In this document: piece after piece, positions 40,020-63,947 of the stretch
Numbering within the stretch: position 1 is the first letter of the stretch
How the letters are laid out: each line of letters opens with the position of its first letter
DNA from: Diacronema lutheri
Lineage: Eukaryota; Haptophyta; Pavlovophyceae; Pavlovales; Pavlovaceae
DNA: 64,000 bases
Reading direction: 5' to 3'
Assembly (NCBI GenBank): GCA_019448385.1
Contig: JAGTXO010000006.1
Coordinates: 248,001 to 312,000 of the forward strand
Made by a program: the position numbers and the translations under genes
Notes under the pieces: generated by a model
What the model saw: only the letters and a program-made list of their open reading frames with translations
Database searches by the model: none
Told to the model about the DNA's origin: nothing

Positions 40020-40094
40020 GTCGCTGTGGTCTAGTTGGTTCATGACGTCCGCTTGACACGCGGAAGGTCCGCAGTTCGATCCTGTGTGGCGATA
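40020..40094 (+). tRNA. trnV-GAC: tRNA-Val (anticodon GAC)
   Basis: The 75 bases fold into a full cloverleaf. Acceptor GTCGCTG pairs with TGGCGAT (with G-T pairs), discriminator A. The D arm is GTC...GAC around TAGTTGGTTCAT. The anticodon arm is TCCGC-TTGACAC-GCGGA with anticodon GAC, the variable loop AGGTC, and the T arm CGCAG-TTCGATC-CTGTG. Internal A box (TGGTCTAGTTGG) and B box (AGTTCGATCC) are present. It is intronless, and CCA is not encoded, as expected for a nuclear gene. A T6 terminator follows at 40101-40106. Confidence 0.95.
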
Positions 40095-55186: not shown

Positions 55187-56971
55187 ATGCCGTTCGTGCT
55201 GTCGCGCCCGAGCTTCGTGGACGAGTCGCTCTTTGGCAACAACCATTCCGTCGCGCGCTCGCGCGGCGCCGCGGGTGCGACGGACACGGCGCGCCAGACG
55301 GGCGCGATCGTCGCCGCGACGGACGTCGAGCGCATGAAACTGTCGGCGACCATCGCCGGCCAGTCGACAGACGCGCGTGCGGCGCGCGAGGCGTCGCTGC
55401 GCGCCATGTCGCAGGCGCGCACGGCCAAGTGGCCTAACACGCTCGACGCGCAGCGGCAGAAGAAGGAGGCCGCGCGACACGAGCGGCTGCAGGCGGAGGA
55501 GGCGTTGCGCGTCGCGATCGACAAGGAGGAGGAGGCCTTCAAGGCGGAGCAGCGGCGGCTGGCGATCGAGCGGGCGAACAAGATGCTGTACGACCAAACC
55601 GACCGCGTCAAGGCGCTGCACACGCGCATGCACATGGCCGACATCGAGGCCGTGCGCAATGAGCAGGTCGCGTTCAAGGCGCGCACAAAGGAGCGCGACC
55701 GTCGGCGCGAGTCGCTGTGGGTCGAGCAGCAAAAGGACATGCTGCGCAAGATGGACGCGGACGAGGACGCGCGCGACGCGGAGGACCACGCGCGCCGCAT
55801 GGAGGAGCGCCGCCTCCGCGAGGCGCAGGTTGCGCTCAAGCACGCCGAGTACGCGGCCAAGCTCGAGACGATCAAGCGCGAGGGCGAGCTCATGCGCGAG
55901 AAGGCGGCGGACGACCTGCACGCCGAGCGGCAGATGGAGCAGGCGCGGCTAGCAACGGAGAAGGCCGCGCGCGAGGAGTCGATGCGCCTCAACGATTACC
56001 TCAAGGACCTCAAGAAGCAGCAAGCGCTCGACGAGGCCGCCGCCGACGACAAGATGCGCAGGTCCGCGCGTGCCGCGCGCAGCGCTGCGGCGCGCGGCGC
56101 ACCGCAACCGCGGCGGGCGCCGGCGCCGAGGCGCGCGCCCGCGTGGCGCGCGCGACCTGCCGCCGTGGCCTCCGCTCACGCCGCCGGGCCGCGCGCGCGC
56201 GCGCACCGACGGGCGTCGTCGCGCGCAGGTACGCGATCGCAAAGGAGAAGTCGCTCCTTGCACGGCGCGCGCGGGAGGACGAGCGCTTTGCGGCACGGCA
56301 GGCGGTGCGGCAGCGGATGATCGACGCACAGGTCGAGCGGCTCGCGCGCATGCAGCAGACGAGCGACACGCGCATGCAGCGCCAGGTCGACGAGCTCGAG
56401 GCGCAGGTGCGCGGGGCGGAGCGCGCGAGGCATGCAAAGGCGCGCGCCGATCTCGTCGCGACGCACATCTCGCGGCAGCAGCAGCTCAAGTGGAAGTCGG
56501 ACGCGCACAAGCAGGAGGAGCTCGAGCGCGCGCACTTTGCCTCGCAGCTCGGCGAGCTCAACGAGCGCCTGCGCAACGAGGAGCTCGCGAAGACCGTGCA
56601 TGAGCGCAAAGAGCGCGAGCGCCTCGACGACTACCTCTTCGACCAGATGGCGCAAAAGCAGGCGACCGAGCTCGCCGAGCGGCGGGCGGAGGTGCAGGAG
56701 GCTGACCACATCCAGCAGTTCCTCGACGTGCGCGCTCGCGCGTCGCGCGCGCGCTCGCGCGCTCGCGCGCGCGTGCGCGCATGCGCGCCGCGCCGTGTCG
56801 CTCGCGCGAACGCGCCGCGCCAACCCGTTCGCGGCGCGACGCGCGCCGCAGGACGAGGAGGCCATCTTCCGGCAGTACGCGAAGATGTGCGTGGCCGAAC
56901 TGCAGGAGGAGGGCAAGAGCACGCGGCCGATCGAGCTGCTGCTCTCCAAGAAGGAGAAGCTCTTCGATTGA
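55187..56971 (+). CDS. Ciliary trichohyalin-plectin-homology (TPH) coiled-coil protein, CFAP45/CFAP210-like
   Basis: Exons 55187-56061, 56229-56727 and 56852-56971 encode 497 residues. The protein is almost entirely charged heptad helix (EARRHERLQAEEALR-type, KERDRRRESLWVEQQKDMLR, RAHFASQLGELNERLRNEEL), the TPH-domain look of microtubule inner proteins in the ciliary doublet. The N-terminus MPFVLSRPSFVDESLFGNN and the ending IFRQYAKMCVAELQEEGKST with RPIELLLSKKEKLFD are compact and probably contact tubulin. Introns of 167 and 124 bases start GTCCGC and GTGCGC and end CGCAG; phases 2 and 0 fit. CFAP45 and CFAP210 cannot be told apart here. It is divergent from the Agenet-like gene (127 bp). 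Confidence 0.83.
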
Positions 56972-57156
56972 ATCCTGCAGTGAGACTAGGGACACGGCAG
57001 CACCAGGGACTGACAGCACTGGGAGCTACCGGCCCCGCAAAGCGGCTAGGCTACCGGCCCCGCAAAAAAGCGCGGCGCCACGCCGACCATTCACCATTGT
57101 ACTTACTCCCCTCCAGCAAGCGAAAGCGAGGCCGCGACGTTTTCGCGCGCTGGACC

Positions 57157-59112
57157 ATGGCAAAGCGGCTGCGCTTCGACGAGCTCGTCGAAGAGGTGGA
57201 CGCGCTCGTGGACGAGCCCATCGCGCCGCCCGCGCGCGCCAGCCCGCCAGAATACGCGCTCGTGGCCGAGCGCTTCGTCGCGGCCGCGCTGGCCGAGCGT
57301 GGCGACAGCCACGGCGAAGCGCACGCGCGCGTCGTGCGCGACACGGCATTGCACATCCTCGATCGGCTCGAGCAGCGCCCACCGGCGCCGGCCGCAGAGG
57401 CGGACGCGTCCGACCGGCGCGTCGTCGAGCTCGCCGCCTTGCTGCACGACGTGTGTGACCACAAGTACTGCGACCCAAACACGCCTGCTGGCCGCGCGGC
57501 AATCGGCGCGCGCGACACGTGCCTCGCGGCGCTCGTGCCGCCCGACGAAGCGGCGCTCGTGCTCTCAATCATCGATGCCGTCTCCTTCTCGCGCGAGGCC
57601 AAGGGGAAGCTCAACCTTGACGCGATGGCGCCGCGTGCGCGCCGTCTGCGCGACGTCGTGTCCGACGCGGATAAGCTCGAGGCGATCGGCGCCGTCGGCC
57701 TCCGCCGCTGCCTCGACTTTCGGCGCGAGCAGGCGCGCGAGCGCGGCGCGGCGGAGGGCACGCTGACGGCCGAAGTGCTCGCGCGCGACGTGGCGGTGCA
57801 CTGCGACGAGAAGCTCCTCCGCCTGACCGCCGGTTACGTGCGCACAGACGCGGGTCGTTCGCTCGCCGCGCCGCGCCACCGGATGTTACGCGAGTGGCGA
57901 GCGCGCTTTGCCGACGTGGACGGCGCGCCGCCGCTCGTCAGCGTGGTGATGACCGTGCGCAATTGCGAGCCGTGGCTCGCCGCCGCGCTCGAGAGCGTGC
58001 GCGCGCAGAGCCACCGGCCGCTCGAGCTCTCGCTTGTCGACGACGGGTCGACAGACGGCAGCTGGCAGGTTGTGACCGCGCATGTGCCCGAGCTCGAGGC
58101 CGCTGGCGTGCGCGTGCTCGCCGCGACGACGGGCGCGGCGGCCGCCGGCCGCGGCATCGGCTACGGGCAGAACCGAGCGGTGGCCCAGTCGTCCGGGGTG
58201 TACCTCTGCTTCCTCGACGGCGACGACGTCTGCCACCCGCGGCGCGCGCGCGAGCAGCTGAGGCGTGCGCTGCGGCACGATGGTGGGTGCGGCACTCGGG
58301 GCGAGGGCGGCGCGGATGGCGAGAGTGGCGGTGGCGGCGGCGGTGAGGGCGAGGGCGGCGGCGAGGGTGACGCGGGCGCTCGCGCTGCGCGCGACGTGCC
58401 CCGCGTGGCGCTCGCCGCGCCCGCCGGCGCGGCGCCGCTGCTCGTCGGCTGCGGCTTCACGCGCGAGCCGGCGGACGCGACGCCGCGGTACACCGCGTGG
58501 GCCAACGGCCTGAGCGACGCGCAGCTGCACACGCACTGCCTGCGCGAGCTCACGGTGCTCCATCCATGCTGGTTCTGCCATCGCTCTGTCTTTGAGCGGC
58601 TCGGCGGGCTGCGCGAGGACGGGCGCGGCTTTCCGGAGGACCTGCACTTCTTCTACGAACACCTGCGCAGCGGCGGAGCGCTCGCGCGCGTGCCCGAGCC
58701 GCTGCTCGTCTGGCGGCATGCGCCGACGGGTGTCACCGCGTCGCGCGGCGTCGCGTGGCAGACAATCTGGCAGCTGCGCGTGCAGCACCTCGAGGCGGCT
58801 GTCCTTGCGCTCCCGCCGTGGTCGGCCGGCTTCACCGTGTGGGGCGCCGGCCGCGAGGGCAAGCGGCTCTTCCGATCGCTCTCGGCGCGCTCGCGCGCGC
58901 TCGTGCGCGCCTTTTGCGACGTCGATGCGAAGAAGGTGGCGCGCGGCGTGTACGCGAGCCGCGAGCTCAGCGCGTCCGTTCCCATCGTGCACTTCACCGC
59001 CGCGCTTCCGCCGCTGCTGCTGTGCGTCAAGGATTTTGACGGCGCGTTCGCGGCCAACGTCGCGTCGCTCGGGCTGCGAGAGGGTGAGGACTTCTTGCAC
59101 TTTTCCTTTTGA
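57157..59112 (+). CDS. Fusion of HD-domain phosphohydrolase and B3GNTL1-like GT2 glycosyltransferase
   Basis: One exon, 651 residues, ATG at 57157. Residues about 1-240 form an HD hydrolase: the metal site is suggested by HGEAHARVVRDTALHILDRL, LAALLHDVCDHKY (HD pair) and VVSDADKLEAIGAVGL. From about 268 a family 2 glycosyltransferase starts: VSVVMTVRNCEPWLAAALES, LSLVDDGSTDGSWQV and YLCFLDGDDVCHPRRA (DxD-type). The end is B3GNTL1-specific: WQTIWQLRVQHLEAAVLALP, FTVWGAGREGKRLFRSLSAR, AFCDVDAKKVARGVYASREL and LLLCVKDFDGAFAANVASLG. A Gly/Glu-rich linker breaks the GT domain at about 375-400. Both halves keep their key residues, so a bifunctional cytosolic enzyme is likely; substrates are unknown. 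Confidence 0.9.
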   Translation: MAKRLRFDELVEEVDALVDEPIAPPARASPPEYALVAERFVAAALAERGDSHGEAHARVVRDTALHILDRLEQRPPAPAAEADASDRRVVELAALLHDVCDHKYCDPNTPAGRAAIGARDTCLAALVPPDEAALVLSIIDAVSFSREAKGKLNLDAMAPRARRLRDVVSDADKLEAIGAVGLRRCLDFRREQARERGAAEGTLTAEVLARDVAVHCDEKLLRLTAGYVRTDAGRSLAAPRHRMLREWRARFADVDGAPPLVSVVMTVRNCEPWLAAALESVRAQSHRPLELSLVDDGSTDGSWQVVTAHVPELEAAGVRVLAATTGAAAAGRGIGYGQNRAVAQSSGVYLCFLDGDDVCHPRRAREQLRRALRHDGGCGTRGEGGADGESGGGGGGEGEGGGEGDAGARAARDVPRVALAAPAGAAPLLVGCGFTREPADATPRYTAWANGLSDAQLHTHCLRELTVLHPCWFCHRSVFERLGGLREDGRGFPEDLHFFYEHLRSGGALARVPEPLLVWRHAPTGVTASRGVAWQTIWQLRVQHLEAAVLALPPWSAGFTVWGAGREGKRLFRSLSARSRALVRAFCDVDAKKVARGVYASRELSASVPIVHFTAALPPLLLCVKDFDGAFAANVASLGLREGEDFLHFSF

Positions 59113-59154: not shown

Positions 59155-60675
59155 TCATTCGATGGGCTCAGACTCTGCTTCCTTCGTCCCGCCCTCGGGC
59201 TGCCACTCGACCTGCTGCGTGCGCCGGCCGGAGCGCTCACGCAGCGCGTGCTCGTAGATCAGCTGGTCGAGCTTTGTGATCGCCGTCCGCAGCGCCGGCA
59301 GCTTGCCCTCGACGCGGCGCGGCCAGGCGGTGCCGAGCGAGAGGGCGAGCTCGAGCACGGCGAGCGCGCAGCCGCGCGCGCTCAGCACGGTGGGCGCGTC
59401 GCGCACGGTCGCCTTGGCGACGGCGACGCGTGCCACCTCGCCAATGAGGTCGCCAAGCCCGCCCAAGTACTCAGACGGCTCGAGCCGCACCCCGCCGAAC
59501 GCGGGCGCGTCGCGCGCGAGCAGCCGCGCGCCGCCGAGCCACGCCTCGAACAGCCGCGCCTCCGCGAGCTCCTCGAGCATCGCGCGCACGAAGGGCGCGC
59601 CGCGCAGCGACGTGTGCGCGCGCGCAATGTCGCGCAAGATCGACGCCGATAGCTCCGTCGCCTGGCGCAGCTGTTCGGCCGCGCGCGGCGCGTCGGCGCG
59701 GTGGAGGGCGAAGATGGCGTTCTTCGCCAGCTTCTGCACGTCGCGCGCGCGCTTGATCGCGAGCTCGCGCGCCTCGTCCTCGTCCTCGTACGCGGCGCGC
59801 GCGGCGTCGAGCGCGGCCATGTCAACGAGCACGCTCACCGCCGGCCTGCTCGCCCCCTGCGCCGCGCGCGCGAGCGCCGCGGCGTCGTCATCAAAGAGCG
59901 CAAGCTCGTAGAGCGTGTCCGCGCACCGGCGGACGACGTACTTGAGCGAGTCGAAGGCCTGGCGGAGCGGGCCGTTGCGCAGGTTGAATGCGAGCAGGCC
60001 CTCCTGCAGCGCACCCACCGCCGCCGCCGCCGCCGCGACCGATGCGGCGTCGCCCGCCGCCCCACGCCGCTGCGCGTACCGCCCAATCTCGTGCGCGGCG
60101 CTGATCATCCCGTGCAGCCACTCGGTGTCGAGGAAGCGCGCGCGCGGCTCGGTGGCGGATACGGCGGACGCGGGGGCAGCGGCCGGCGGGCCGTCCGCGC
60201 GTGGCGCCAGCTGCGGTGCGCGCGCCGTCCAGTCAGCCGACGGCACGGGCTTGGCGCCGAGCGTGCCGGTTGTCAGAAAGGACTCGAACGTCTGCGCGCA
60301 CGCGAGCGCCTGCATGGCCTGCGCACAGGTGAACACTCGTAGCTCGCTCTGCGGCTCGACAAGTTGCAGCTGCGCAGCGCACGCCTGCGCAGCGCCCCTC
60401 AGGTGCTCGCGCGCGCTCAGCTCGTCGCCGAGATGGCGCGCGTGCAGGTGGAGCGCGAGGGCCTCCTGAATCTCGCGGCAGGCGGCGCCAAGCGACTCGC
60501 GCGCCGCCTTGTCGGCAAGCAGCTCGATCCGCAGCGAGGCCGCCTGCGCGAGGAACGCCGCATGCTCCGTGTCGGCAAGCCGCTCGGGCGCTGCTGGCGC
60601 CGAAAGGGCGCTCATGGCGCGGCGCGTTTCATGCGCAGAAATCCAAAGCATAAAAATCCGTCCCTGATGACTCAT
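59155..60675 (-). CDS. Tandem translin-TRAX-like protein (C3PO RNase subunits fused)
   Basis: 506 residues from 60675; an alternative ATG is at 60615 (MSALSAPAAPERLADTEH). The first half ends with the translin hallmark LLAFNLRNGPLRQAFDSLKY, VVRRCADTLYELAL, preceded by EWLHGMISAAHEIGRYAQ. After a short linker a second translin fold begins: KRARDVQKLAKNAIFALHRA, MLEELAEARLFEAWLGGARL, YLGGLGDLIGEVARVAVAKA and GKLPALRTAITKLDQLIYEH. The second half keeps acidic residues (EELAE, D and E of GLGDLIGEVAR) in the places where TRAX binds its metal and cuts RNA. In other eukaryotes translin and TRAX are separate chains of the C3PO endoribonuclease. The domain split is inferred from motifs. Confidence 0.8.
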   Translation of the reverse strand: MSHQGRIFMLWISAHETRRAMSALSAPAAPERLADTEHAAFLAQAASLRIELLADKAARESLGAACREIQEALALHLHARHLGDELSAREHLRGAAQACAAQLQLVEPQSELRVFTCAQAMQALACAQTFESFLTTGTLGAKPVPSADWTARAPQLAPRADGPPAAAPASAVSATEPRARFLDTEWLHGMISAAHEIGRYAQRRGAAGDAASVAAAAAAVGALQEGLLAFNLRNGPLRQAFDSLKYVVRRCADTLYELALFDDDAAALARAAQGASRPAVSVLVDMAALDAARAAYEDEDEARELAIKRARDVQKLAKNAIFALHRADAPRAAEQLRQATELSASILRDIARAHTSLRGAPFVRAMLEELAEARLFEAWLGGARLLARDAPAFGGVRLEPSEYLGGLGDLIGEVARVAVAKATVRDAPTVLSARGCALAVLELALSLGTAWPRRVEGKLPALRTAITKLDQLIYEHALRERSGRRTQQVEWQPEGGTKEAESEPIE

Positions 60676-60749: not shown

Positions 60750-63700
60750 TCACCGTCGCGCGAAGCCAAAGCTGCGGTACGCCGACGTCGCACCGGGCTG
60801 CGCCGTGCGAGGCGTCTCGGTGACGCCGATGCCGGCCGCGATCGCGCCTTTGTCGAGGCTGACGGCAACGGCATGCCTGTACGCTTCGCGCGCTCGGCGC
60901 AGCCGGCTGGCGGCCGAGTCGGCGCCCGTGGTGGCGCGCGCTCGCGCCAAGCCCTCCGCCGCGCGTGCGGCGACCGTCGGCCGCGCGAACGGCTCGGCCG
61001 CAGCCTCGCGCGTGGACTGCGCGCCGTCGACGTCCGGAGCGCGGCTGGGCACGCCCGCCGCATGGCTGCCGTAGTAGGGCGACGCCACGATGCGGTGGTA
61101 AGGCGACGCGTCGGCGCGCGGATCGAGCGCGCGCGCCACCGGACGCGCCGCGCACTCGTCTCCTCGATCGTCGAGTGCAGAGTCGGCACGTGCAATAGGA
61201 GCGGGCTGCACGCCACCGGTGCGCGAGGCGTGTGCGAGCGCGCGCGCGTGCGCGTGGCTGGCGGCGCGCTGCTCGTCGTCCTCGGCACGCGCGTCCGCCG
61301 CAAAACGCGCGCCGAGCAGCGAGCTGTGCTGCACGCCGGGCACGGGCGCACGGCCGCCGCGCGGCGAGAGCGCAGCGTGGCCCGCCGAGCGCGCACGCTC
61401 CTCGGCGGCGGGCTCGTCGTCGTCGCGCTCGCCGTGCGCGGCGTGGGGCCGGAACGCGTCCTCGTGGTCTGCGGCAAAACCCGGGCCGAAGAGCTCGGCC
61501 GCGCGCGCGCCGGGCACGCGCGCGCGCTGGCCGGCGCCGCCGCCCGCGCCGCGCCCGCCGCCCCGCGCCGCCGACACCTCGAGCGAGAAGCACGCGCCAT
61601 GCATCGATGGCTGCCGGGCGCCCGGCACCGGCGCACGCACCTTGCCGTGCAGCGCGCGCGGCGAGCGTCCGGCCGGCGCGCGCTGCGTCGCCGGCGCAGA
61701 CGGCGCGCGCCCTGCGGCAGCGGCCAGCCTGAGGCGCGGCACGGGCGGCGCGCATTCCTGGCGCGCGCGCGCGCGCGAGGGCAGGCATCGAGGTGGCGCG
61801 TCGCGCGCGTGCGTGCGCGCGTGCCGCTTTTGCCGCGTCAGGCGCAAGTGCGTCCGGTGCGGGCGCGGGATGCGCCACGTATCGGCGCCGCGTGCCCCGC
61901 ACCAGACGCACCAACGCCGTCGCGGCGCCGCGGCGCGCGCGTGCGCACGCACCCGCACGCCGGCGTCCTCTTCGACCCTGTCGCTCGAGCGGAGCGGCCT
62001 GAGCGCATCGTCAGAATGGCTGCGGCTCGTAGCAACAGCGCCGCTCAGCCCATCGCGCGCGTGTGCCGCATTGCCAACGCTGCGCACGCGCCCGTCTGCG
62101 CTGCGCACGTGGCTGTGCGCCGCCGGCCAGACGCCCTCGCTCTCGCTTGAGGCGTTGCGCGCAGCGCGCCCGCCCTTGCCGCCGAGCGCGACGACGCTGT
62201 CGATGTCCACCGCCGACATCGCCTCCACCATCGCTCGGCCGGGGCTCGCGTCGTCGCCCGTCGGCGCGCCGGCGGCGCGTGCGTCCGTCGCGGGCGCAAC
62301 CGTAACCACCGCGGCGGTCGGCTGAGCGCGTCGCGCCGACGGCTCAGTGGGCGCGTGGCGCGGCGAGGTGAGGGAGGCGGACGCGCCCGTCGAGCGGGAC
62401 GTCGGCATCGGCTGACGCCTCGCCGAGCTGCCGCGCGCCAACGAACGCGGCGAGTCAGCGAAGGCCGCGCCCGCATCAGCACCGGGCCCCGCGCGCGCTC
62501 GCAGAAGGGCGTCGGCCGCGCCGCCGCTCAGGCTGTGCGGGTACCTGCCGGACGGCTTGGCGCGCGCGAGGCTCGCGTCCCCACCGCCGCCGCGCGCGCC
62601 AGCTGGCGACGAGCCCGCGCTGGGCCCGCCCCACTGCGTGCGCGCGGGCGGCGCGGGCGCTGCGCCGGGAAGTGAAATCGACGGGTCGTGCGATGAGCGC
62701 CACACCTGCCGCTCGTGCGTGCCGCGCAGCTCGGCGGGCTGACGGTCGGCAAAGCCACGCAGGTCAAAGCGCTTGTGCTGCAGCTCGCCGAATTCGGCGG
62801 AACGTGCGCCCACGCCGCCGAGCGCACCGCCGAGCGTGCCGCCGAGTGCATCGCCGGCCGTCGCAGCCGCTGCCTCGATGCCGCACGCGGCCGGGTCGCG
62901 CGAGAGCCGCGCGGACGAGGCGCGCCCCGCGCCGGACGCGCCAGCCGTTGGCGCGCGCCGCTTGCTCTGCAGCTGCAGCTCGTCGTGCGCGGGTTTGGCG
63001 GCCATGCTGCCGGCCGCACCGCTCGCGCCGGGCTCGCCGCCGCGCGCCTCGCCGCCCAGCAGCGCGCGCATCTGCGCGCTCGAGCGCTGCGCGCCGCGGC
63101 GCGGCGAGAGCGAGAGGCGCGCAGCGGCGGACGTGGCGGCGGTCTCGTCGTCCACCCACGCCGTTTCGCCCCCCTCCCACGGCGCGCGCCGCTCGGCCGC
63201 GCGCAGCTCAGCGAGTGCGCGACCGCCGCCCTCACCGCCGCCCTCACCGCCGCCCTCACCGCCGCCCCCACCGCCGCCCTCGCCGCCGCGGTGCTCGATC
63301 CACACGTCGCCCGCCGCGCGGAGCTCACGGCTGGCCGCCTCGCTTAGCGGCCGTGCGCGCGGTCGATTGGCCGCGCGCGCCGCCCTGCCCTTGCCGCCGC
63401 GCCATGCCGTCCGCTCGGCGCTCGCCCGCGCGTGAAAAGGCGCCACGCCGCCTGCCGCCTCAACTTCGCCGTGCCGCGCGGGCGGCCAAGGGCGCGCGCG
63501 CTGGCCGCGCGAGCCGTCGGCGCGCGGCAATTCGCCTATCACCTGTGCGTCTGCCTCGCCGCCGTCTGGCGGCGCGTCGGGCGGGCGCAGCGCGTGCACG
63601 CGCTCGTCGAGGAAGTTTCCGAGGGAGTGGACGAGCTCGAGGGCGCCCAGCCGTCTGCCCGAGCCAGCGCCTTTGCGCGTGCGCGGCTTCGGCGCCGACT

Positions 63701-63947
63701 CGGCGCGCGTGAGCCGCTTGTCGAAGGACGGCCGCGTGCTCGGCGGCGCACGCGCCGACGCCACCGCCGCGCCCGCGTCCGCGTCCGCGCCGGTGCGCGC
63801 GGCTGCGTCGCCATACGAATCGTACGGCACGCGCAGCATCGAGCGCGTGGGCGCGGGCGAGCGCGCGTCGGCGCGCGGCTCAACGGCATAAGGCGCGCCC
63901 AAGCTCGGCGTGCGAGCGCGCCGCCTGCTTGGCGCCGCGTCGTCCAT
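60750..63947 (-). CDS. Long disordered protein of unknown function
   Basis: Exons 63947-61959 and 61757-60750 encode 998 residues. The 201-base intron (GTGCGG...GCCAG, phase 0) is proposed because the in-frame read-through is purely Arg/Ala/His-rich. The protein is Ser/Ala/Gly/Arg-rich with few hydrophobics, Gly-Glu repeats (EGGGEGGGEGGG), many Ser-Pro sites, and short motif repeats (VPGARQPSMHGACFSLEV; VPGVQHSSLLGARFAAD), suggesting short linear binding motifs. Some clearly structured patches occur (LGALELVHSLGNFLDERVHA, ELQHKRFDLRGFADRQPAEL). The C-terminus ends ATSAYRSFGFARR. It could be a cytoskeletal or ciliary scaffold; there is no domain evidence. Confidence 0.6.
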   Translation of the reverse strand: MDDAAPSRRRARTPSLGAPYAVEPRADARSPAPTRSMLRVPYDSYGDAAARTGADADAGAAVASARAPPSTRPSFDKRLTRAESAPKPRTRKGAGSGRRLGALELVHSLGNFLDERVHALRPPDAPPDGGEADAQVIGELPRADGSRGQRARPWPPARHGEVEAAGGVAPFHARASAERTAWRGGKGRAARAANRPRARPLSEAASRELRAAGDVWIEHRGGEGGGGGGGEGGGEGGGEGGGRALAELRAAERRAPWEGGETAWVDDETAATSAAARLSLSPRRGAQRSSAQMRALLGGEARGGEPGASGAAGSMAAKPAHDELQLQSKRRAPTAGASGAGRASSARLSRDPAACGIEAAAATAGDALGGTLGGALGGVGARSAEFGELQHKRFDLRGFADRQPAELRGTHERQVWRSSHDPSISLPGAAPAPPARTQWGGPSAGSSPAGARGGGGDASLARAKPSGRYPHSLSGGAADALLRARAGPGADAGAAFADSPRSLARGSSARRQPMPTSRSTGASASLTSPRHAPTEPSARRAQPTAAVVTVAPATDARAAGAPTGDDASPGRAMVEAMSAVDIDSVVALGGKGGRAARNASSESEGVWPAAHSHVRSADGRVRSVGNAAHARDGLSGAVATSRSHSDDALRPLRSSDRVEEDAGVRVRAHARAAAPRRRWCVWCGARGADTWRIPRPHRTHLRLTRQKRHARTHARDAPPRCLPSRARARQECAPPVPRLRLAAAAGRAPSAPATQRAPAGRSPRALHGKVRAPVPGARQPSMHGACFSLEVSAARGGGRGAGGGAGQRARVPGARAAELFGPGFAADHEDAFRPHAAHGERDDDEPAAEERARSAGHAALSPRGGRAPVPGVQHSSLLGARFAADARAEDDEQRAASHAHARALAHASRTGGVQPAPIARADSALDDRGDECAARPVARALDPRADASPYHRIVASPYYGSHAAGVPSRAPDVDGAQSTREAAAEPFARPTVAARAAEGLARARATTGADSAASRLRRAREAYRHAVAVSLDKGAIAAGIGVTETPRTAQPGATSAYRSFGFARR

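What the first reader, a model, noticed from the sequence alone, without database searches (positions are those of the whole stretch)
59155..60675. Translin and TRAX apparently joined in one polypeptide
Two successive translin-superfamily folds are visible. The first ends in the translin tail motif and the second carries acidic residues in the TRAX catalytic positions. C3PO is normally an octamer of separate translin and TRAX chains, so a fusion would fix the ratio and arrangement of subunits.
Basis: partly seen in the sequence, partly recalled or inferred. Interest (0 to 1): 0.75.

Follow-up and report, generated by a model that had tools for sequence, protein, structure and literature searches.

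The report
Single-chain C3PO with two translin domains
In this genome (likely that of the marine alga Diacronema lutheri), one gene encodes a single protein with two translin-family domains in a row, one carrying the tail that translin uses to bind nucleic acid and one carrying the four acidic residues that TRAX uses to cut RNA, so the C3PO complex that animals build from two separate proteins would here likely be built from equal numbers of both parts.

Summary
Observation confirmed. The minus-strand gene at 59155-60615 (not 60675) encodes 486 aa with two translin-family (PF01997) domains in one open frame; two confident AlphaFold2 models give two six-helix translin folds. Domain 2 has all four TRAX catalytic acids. 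Domain 1 lacks three of them but keeps the translin R-N...R tail. In 80 proteins with both domains nearly complete (this one and 79 relatives) the division is perfect: quartet 0/80 in D1 and 80/80 in D2, tail 80/80 and 0/80. The chain occurs in haptophytes and ochrophytes (raphidophyte, chrysophyte, Chrysoparadoxa, brown alga, diatom), partly as transcript-derived entries. No other translin-family locus was found in this genome, so a 1:1 ratio would be forced. The origin is open: best trees place both domains with single-domain algal translins that hold quartet and tail together, apart from animal/fungal translin and TRAX. That favours tandem duplication and splitting of a one-gene C3PO over fusion of TSN with TSNAX, but AU tests do not reject fusion. 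Likely function: a one-chain C3PO-type RNase, predicted to form a four-chain pseudo-octamer; a RISC role is doubtful, as no Piwi domain was found. The literature searches showed no paper describing it.

The parts
59155..60615 (-). Coding sequence of the two-domain translin-family protein, 486 aa, stop TGA at 59155-59157; single open frame
59896..60570 (-). Domain 1 (aa 36-260 of the 506-aa ORF): translin-like in residues, catalytic quartet incomplete, nucleic-acid-binding tail kept
59962..59979 (-). Translin tail motif in domain 1: R233-N234...R238 (human translin K187-N188...R192)
   Evidence: present in 80 of 80 D1, 0 of 80 D2
59824..59895 (-). Linker of 24 aa (aa 261-284); 18-58 aa in the 21 aligned rows (this protein twice), sequence not conserved
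   Evidence: GC3 0.955
59221..59823 (-). Domain 2 (aa 285-485): TRAX-like, predicted catalytic
59560..59571 (-). Predicted catalytic acids E369 and E372 (human TRAX E126, E129)
59437..59451 (-). Predicted catalytic acids D409 and E413 (human TRAX D193, E197)
60616..60675 (-). Upstream in-frame extension of the ORF, probably not translated
   Evidence: GC3 0.50 over 20 codons, absent from the database protein

Best explanation
The gene encodes one polypeptide holding two translin-family domains, the first with translin's R-N...R tail but without the full set of TRAX's acidic residues and the second with all four of those acids, and it likely works as a single-chain C3PO endoribonuclease. Shown: one open frame; the acid quartet only in domain 2 and the tail only in domain 1 in 80 of 80 proteins with both domains nearly complete; no other translin-family locus found in the genome. 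Predicted: each half adopts the translin fold. Inferred: the two halves pair (within a chain or by swapping between chains) like the translin-TRAX dimer; four chains close into a barrel of eight folds in which RNA is held on the inner equator and cut by domain 2, so translin-like and TRAX-like parts are fixed at 4:4. Inferred: the substrates are precursor RNAs such as pre-tRNA 5' fragments rather than Argonaute-bound passenger strands. Inferred from trees, not decisive: both domains come from tandem duplication of a one-gene catalytic translin, the two copies then losing opposite functions, in parallel with animal TSN and TRAX.
For: Pfam PF01997 in two stretches. First half to translin, second half to TRAX in PDB sequence searches. 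Full model pLDDT 88.1, pTM 0.83; D1 alone pLDDT 89.5; structural matches to C3PO chains. Quartet EEDE 80/80 in D2 and 0/80 in D1; tail 0/80 in D2 and 80/80 in D1; both together in 9/9 single-domain algal proteins. D1 and D2 are each one clade in a tree with 29 of the 80 (100/97 and 100/98). D1 and D2 subtrees share 10 of 25 splits against a mean of 0.17 and maximum of 3 in 1000 shuffles, so the chain is inherited as a unit. No other PF01997 locus at E<=10, nor with a free algal protein as query. Entries that are transcript-derived by their source names carry both domains (P0018, P0027, P0029, P0044). Literature: catalysis lies in TRAX and only E197 of its catalytic residues is shared with translin (PMC9246224, passages); mutation of translin's 192-RKRY motif reduces nucleic-acid binding (PMC3299731, passages). 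No Piwi match at E<=10.
Against: No biochemistry, no oligomer model and no RNA reads of this locus. AU tests do not reject the rival orthology. TRAX's own basic motifs also contribute to binding (PMC3299731), and D2 keeps the equivalents of translin R21 and R86 in 79 of 80 each while D1 keeps R21 in 56 and R86 in 40 of 80, so 'D1 binds, D2 cuts' is too neat. An RdRP gene is present, so some RNA silencing may exist. Intron-split TSN or TSNAX exons could escape the six-frame search, and the published assembly has 80.8% complete BUSCOs (PMC8379373, passages). The length filter of the protein searches kept out proteins under about 277 aa, so separate translins in related algae were not looked for.
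Confidence: 0.62

Rival explanations
1. True gene fusion: an ancestral translin gene joined to an ancestral TSNAX gene, so that D1 is orthologous to TSN and D2 to TRAX, with the same function as C3PO.
For: D1 and TSN share the incomplete quartet and the kept tail; D2 and TRAX share the reverse. PDB sequence searches sort the halves that way. AU tests do not reject TSN+D1 (p 0.386, 0.221, 0.127), TRAX+D2 (p 0.164, 0.241), TSN+D1+free (p 0.373) or TRAX+D2+free (p 0.12).
Against: Best trees group D1, D2 and single-domain algal translins against TSN+TRAX: 90/94 and 93/93 with archaea (neither starred), 100/99 without, 100/100 with the trait columns blanked. The single-domain algal proteins have both traits (9/9), and 7 of the 9 fall beside D1. 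In structure D1 is not closest to translin.
Confidence: 0.37
2. Two genes read as one: separate translin-like and TRAX-like proteins made from one locus by an intron, a second promoter or internal initiation at M286.
For: M286 lies at the start of domain 2. GC-rich sequence has long chance open frames. Most relatives are predicted proteins, which hold no stop by construction.
Against: The linker varies from 18 to 58 aa in 21 rows, yet both domains stay in one frame; M286 is not in the aligned relatives; the linker has coding GC3; transcript-derived relatives hold both domains; the published annotation pipeline used RNA-seq (PMC8379373, passages), though I did not see its model of this gene.
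Confidence: 0.05
3. The protein is an RNAi factor that removes Argonaute passenger strands, as animal C3PO does.
For: An RdRP-domain gene is present, so RNA silencing cannot be dismissed; C3PO has this role in animals (PMC9246224, passages).
Against: No Piwi match at E<=10 (the control rang in M. jannaschii, a prokaryote without introns). One RNase III match at E<=0.001. PAZ and Dicer_dimer gave nothing, but their controls were silent.
Confidence: 0.12

Closest known systems
Eukaryotic C3PO (translin + TRAX hetero-octamer; human 3pja, fly 3axj)
   Same: Two translin folds, one with the catalytic quartet and one with the nucleic-acid-binding tail.
   Different: One chain instead of two; ratio would be fixed at 1:1, whereas 4:4, 5:3, 6:2 and 4:2 have been reported for two-chain complexes (PMC3299731, passages). 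Best trees do not place D1 with TSN or D2 with TRAX.
Archaeal one-gene C3PO (AfC3PO 3zc0/3zc1; NeC3PO 5jr9/5jrc)
   Different: Archaeal chains have one domain; TRAX alone degrades RNA by oligomerising in Nanoarchaeum (PMC9051087, passages). Here the traits are divided between two domains.
Single-domain algal translins (Raphidocelis P0118, Chromera P0126 and 7 unnamed)
   Same: Closest single-domain relatives of both domains in the tree; share the tail with D1 and the quartet with D2 (9/9).
   Different: One domain with both traits; I know of no experimental study (recall, not searched by name).
Human TSNAX-DISC1 read-through transcripts
   Same: TRAX coding sequence joined to another (recalled, no call).
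   Different: Not a translin-TRAX chain and not an evolutionary fusion (recalled).

Membership tests
Translin superfamily (PF01997) | Match above Pfam gathering score, two stretches | tested here: met
   84.1 bits against cut-off 25.9, 2 stretches
Translin superfamily (PF01997) | All-helical translin fold in each half | tested here: met
TRAX (catalytic C3PO subunit), domain 2 | E126, E129, D193, E197 quartet | tested here: met
   E369, E372, D409, E413; 80 of 80 D2. Residue numbers of the quartet partly recalled; E197 also in PMC9246224
TRAX, domain 2 | Orthology to animal TSNAX | tested here: inconclusive
   Not in best trees; AU p 0.164 and 0.241, a third test unfinished
Translin (TSN), domain 1 | Catalytic quartet incomplete, basic-3 tail (R192) kept | tested here: met
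   A123, C126, S192, E196 and R238; 0 of 80 complete quartets, 80 of 80 tails
Translin (TSN), domain 1 | Basic-2 motif (human 86-RFHEH-90) | tested here: inconclusive
   R86 kept here and in 40 of 80 D1; His not among the five commonest residues at 88 or 90; but position 88 also differs among the three reference translins (H, S, N)
Translin (TSN), domain 1 | Orthology to animal TSN | tested here: inconclusive
   Not in best trees; AU p 0.386, 0.221, 0.127
C3PO complex | Octameric barrel with RNA inside and RNase activity | not testable with these tools
   Only single-chain models available
C3PO complex | Translin and TRAX as separate chains | tested here: not met
   One open frame; no separate locus found

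The most novel reading that the evidence does not exclude
C3PO was invented twice: in algae with red-derived plastids a one-gene, catalytic translin duplicated inside a single gene, and the two halves split into an RNA-holding dead half and a cutting half, arriving independently at the translin/TRAX division of labour but in one chain that forces a 4:4 barrel with four active sites.
Probability: 0.45. Interest if true: 0.78.

Novelty: new variant of a known kind. Interest (0 to 1): 0.62.

Why it matters
The make-up of C3PO is disputed (4:4, 5:3, 6:2 and 4:2 are reported; PMC3299731, passages). A natural chain that ties the two kinds of domain 1:1, with no other copy found in the genome, makes the question testable: if it is active as a four-chain barrel, 4:4 is sufficient. 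If its halves arose separately from animal TSN and TRAX, the loss of catalysis in one partner and of the RNA tail in the other is a repeatable outcome of duplication. It may also show a RISC-independent role of C3PO kept in a genome in which no Argonaute was detected.

Tried and rejected
Profile search of the protein collection with 19 two-domain proteins returned the same 20 proteins as the single query; the more divergent P0020 as query opened the ochrophyte set. In all three only the roughly 8,000 candidates sharing most words were scored, and only lengths of 0.55-1.75 times the query. A weak VTA1 C-terminal match (E 0.26, under the Pfam cut-off; PDB VTA1 chains) was rejected as a helical-hairpin likeness. 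Two separate genes: unlikely (see rivals). RNAi role: Piwi silent with a working control; PAZ and Dicer_dimer silent, but their controls were silent too, so they show nothing; RdRP, POP1 (28.1 bits) and one RNase III were found. One match is printed with an open frame of 935 aa where the others show 512; the ORF listing gives 506 codons and I left this unexplained. Literature: translin with TRAX, fusion and C3PO gave 7 papers, none on such a chain by title and start of abstract; translin with haptophyte 0 and with stramenopile 0; translin with diatom and RNA interference 1, on Leishmania; broader term sets were judged by title and start of abstract of the papers listed only (8 of 8; 20 of 1,377; 3 of 3; 20 of 5,345; 10 of 18). 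The library holds openly licensed papers only. Two C3PO structure papers are not held.

Rows left out: of 127 database proteins (P0002, which is the window's own, and 126 others) 115 have D1 before D2 by the HMM rule; the HMMs were built from 19 of them. 12 were called single, but P0055 and P0085 begin inside D1 and P0128 has a broken D2, leaving 9 single-domain proteins. 35 of the 115 had one domain under 165 aa and were left out of the counts of 80; among them are P0005 (Pavlovales sp. CCMP2436) and P0115 (Cyclophora). The tree used 29 of the 80: named ones plus those under 52% identity to any kept row; P0027 and P0029 are identical in it. The program warned of long branches (NEQ131 with the archaea, D1_P0114) and of 7 rows with odd composition. 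The reruns left out archaea, P0114 and P0029. Two AU tests did not finish: D1+D2 and TRAX+D2 with trait columns blanked. The fly TRAX row is chain 3riu_C; the other fly chain, 3axj_B, has Gln at the second catalytic position, so '2 of 2 TRAX' depends on that choice.

Full report
WHAT IS THERE. The finding lies on the minus strand. The open frame 59155-60675 has 506 codons, but the gene very likely starts at 60615: a database protein identical to the rest begins there (P0002, 486 aa), and third-position GC is 0.50 in the first 20 codons against 0.882, 0.955 and 0.955 in domain 1, linker and domain 2. The window is part of a 43,492,796-base, 103-contig assembly; the published Diacronema lutheri assembly has 43,502,671 bp in 103 contigs and 73.25% GC (PMC8379373, passages). 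The sizes differ by 9,875 bases, so that the organism is this haptophyte is likely but inferred.

DIVISION OF LABOUR. Human TRAX E126, E129, D193, E197 correspond to E369, E372, D409, E413 in domain 2 and to A123, C126, S192, E196 in domain 1. The quartet's numbering is recalled; PMC9246224 names E197 and says that it is the only catalytic residue shared with translin (passages). In 80 proteins with both domains at least 165 aa long (the window's own and 79 relatives), domain 2 has all four acids in 80 of 80 and domain 1 in 0 of 80 (45 keep one, 27 none, 8 two). The tail [KR]-N...R at human translin 187, 188 and 192 is in 80 of 80 domain 1 and 0 of 80 domain 2. R192 is part of a motif whose mutation reduced nucleic-acid binding (PMC3299731, passages) and of the equatorial binding region (PMC3834833, passages). 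The split is not total: TRAX's own basic motifs also help to bind, and domain 2 keeps the equivalents of translin R21 and R86 in 79 of 80 each, more than domain 1 does (56 and 40 of 80).

HOW WIDE. The first search gave 20 proteins, all of 435-562 aa, among them the window's own, Pavlovales sp. CCMP2436 and a EukProt transcript. A second query from the most divergent group gave 109 hits, two of them seen before. By the HMM rule 115 of 127 database proteins have domain 1 before domain 2. The searches used two-domain queries and a length filter that shuts out proteins under about 277 aa, so this fraction says nothing about how common separate translins are. Named carriers are Chattonella subsalsa, a protein labelled chrysophyte, Chrysoparadoxa australica, Pylaiella littoralis and Cyclophora tenuis; the four looked up are ochrophytes, and the Pavlovales are haptophytes. 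Four entries are transcript-derived by their source names (P0018, P0027, P0029, P0044; P0027 and P0029 have identical domains). Linkers range from 18 to 58 aa in the 21 rows of the first alignment. Each domain forms one clade of 29 rows (100/97 and 100/98), and the two domain trees share 10 of 25 splits against a shuffled mean of 0.17 and maximum of 3. This indicates one origin and joint inheritance. Haptophytes and ochrophytes lie in different supergroups, so either the chain is very old with losses or it was passed between algal lineages; this is open.

ORIGIN. Nine single-domain proteins, two of them named (Raphidocelis and Chromera), have both the complete quartet and the tail (9/9). In the tree they lie with D1 and D2, away from human, fly and Trichoderma translin and human and fly TRAX: 90/94 and 93/93 with archaeal rows, neither starred; 100/99 without them and 100/100 when the trait columns are blanked. 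This is what an internal duplication of a one-gene C3PO, followed by opposite losses, would give. It is not proof: AU tests do not reject TSN+D1 (p 0.386, 0.221, 0.127), TRAX+D2 (p 0.164, 0.241), TSN+D1+free (p 0.373) or TRAX+D2+free (p 0.12); two tests did not finish; the references are five opisthokont rows; long branches and skewed composition were flagged. The shared pattern of losses itself speaks for orthology. Domain 1 has diverged more than domain 2 (mean tree distance 2.98 against 1.88).

ONLY COPY. Six-frame search of the genome with PF01997 at E<=10 finds two matches, both in this gene; a single-domain algal protein as query finds two matches, both in this gene. Intron-split genes could be missed, and the paper gives 80.8% complete BUSCOs. 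If no other copy exists, every complex has the two kinds of domain at 1:1.

FUNCTION. Two-chain complexes of 4:4, 5:3, 6:2 and 4:2 are on record and TRAX-TRAX dimers are not observed (PMC3299731, passages). Linking the partners would remove the need to balance two genes; Trax stability depends on translin (PMC9246224, passages). I infer four chains in a pseudo-octamer with four active sites. Piwi is not found at E<=10 and one RNase III match exists at E<=0.001, while RdRP and POP1, an RNase P subunit by recall, are found. A role in pre-tRNA fragment removal or other RNA clearance is therefore likelier than RISC activation, but no call tests it.

VERDICT. A real and conserved single-chain C3PO-type protein that none of the searches of the open literature showed as described. 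The residue pattern and the predicted folds are strong, the assembly and substrate are inferred, the origin is open between duplication and fusion.

Noticed in passing
G000:C91:115475-116905(-): An RdRP-domain gene (two stretches, 73.2 and 38.5 bits) stands in a genome where no Piwi match was found at E<=10; either Argonaute is lost or too divergent or split for the search.
   Followed up: partly
P0035, P0044, P0068 (relatives): These two-domain relatives have N-terminal extensions before an internal Met that look like organelle presequences; the window protein has none. Judged by eye.
   Followed up: no
55717-59112 (+): Convergent neighbour, 42 bases from the stop of the finding; a glycosyltransferase family 2 match at residues 742-855 of the 1131-aa frame, preceded by what looks like an HD hydrolase motif (by eye).
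   Followed up: no
60750-63947 (-): 1065-aa open frame just upstream with no Pfam match at E<=0.01; the region is 77-78% GC, so it may be partly a chance frame.
   Followed up: no
40020-40094 (+): tRNA-Val (gac), the only tRNA that ARAGORN found in the window.
   Followed up: no
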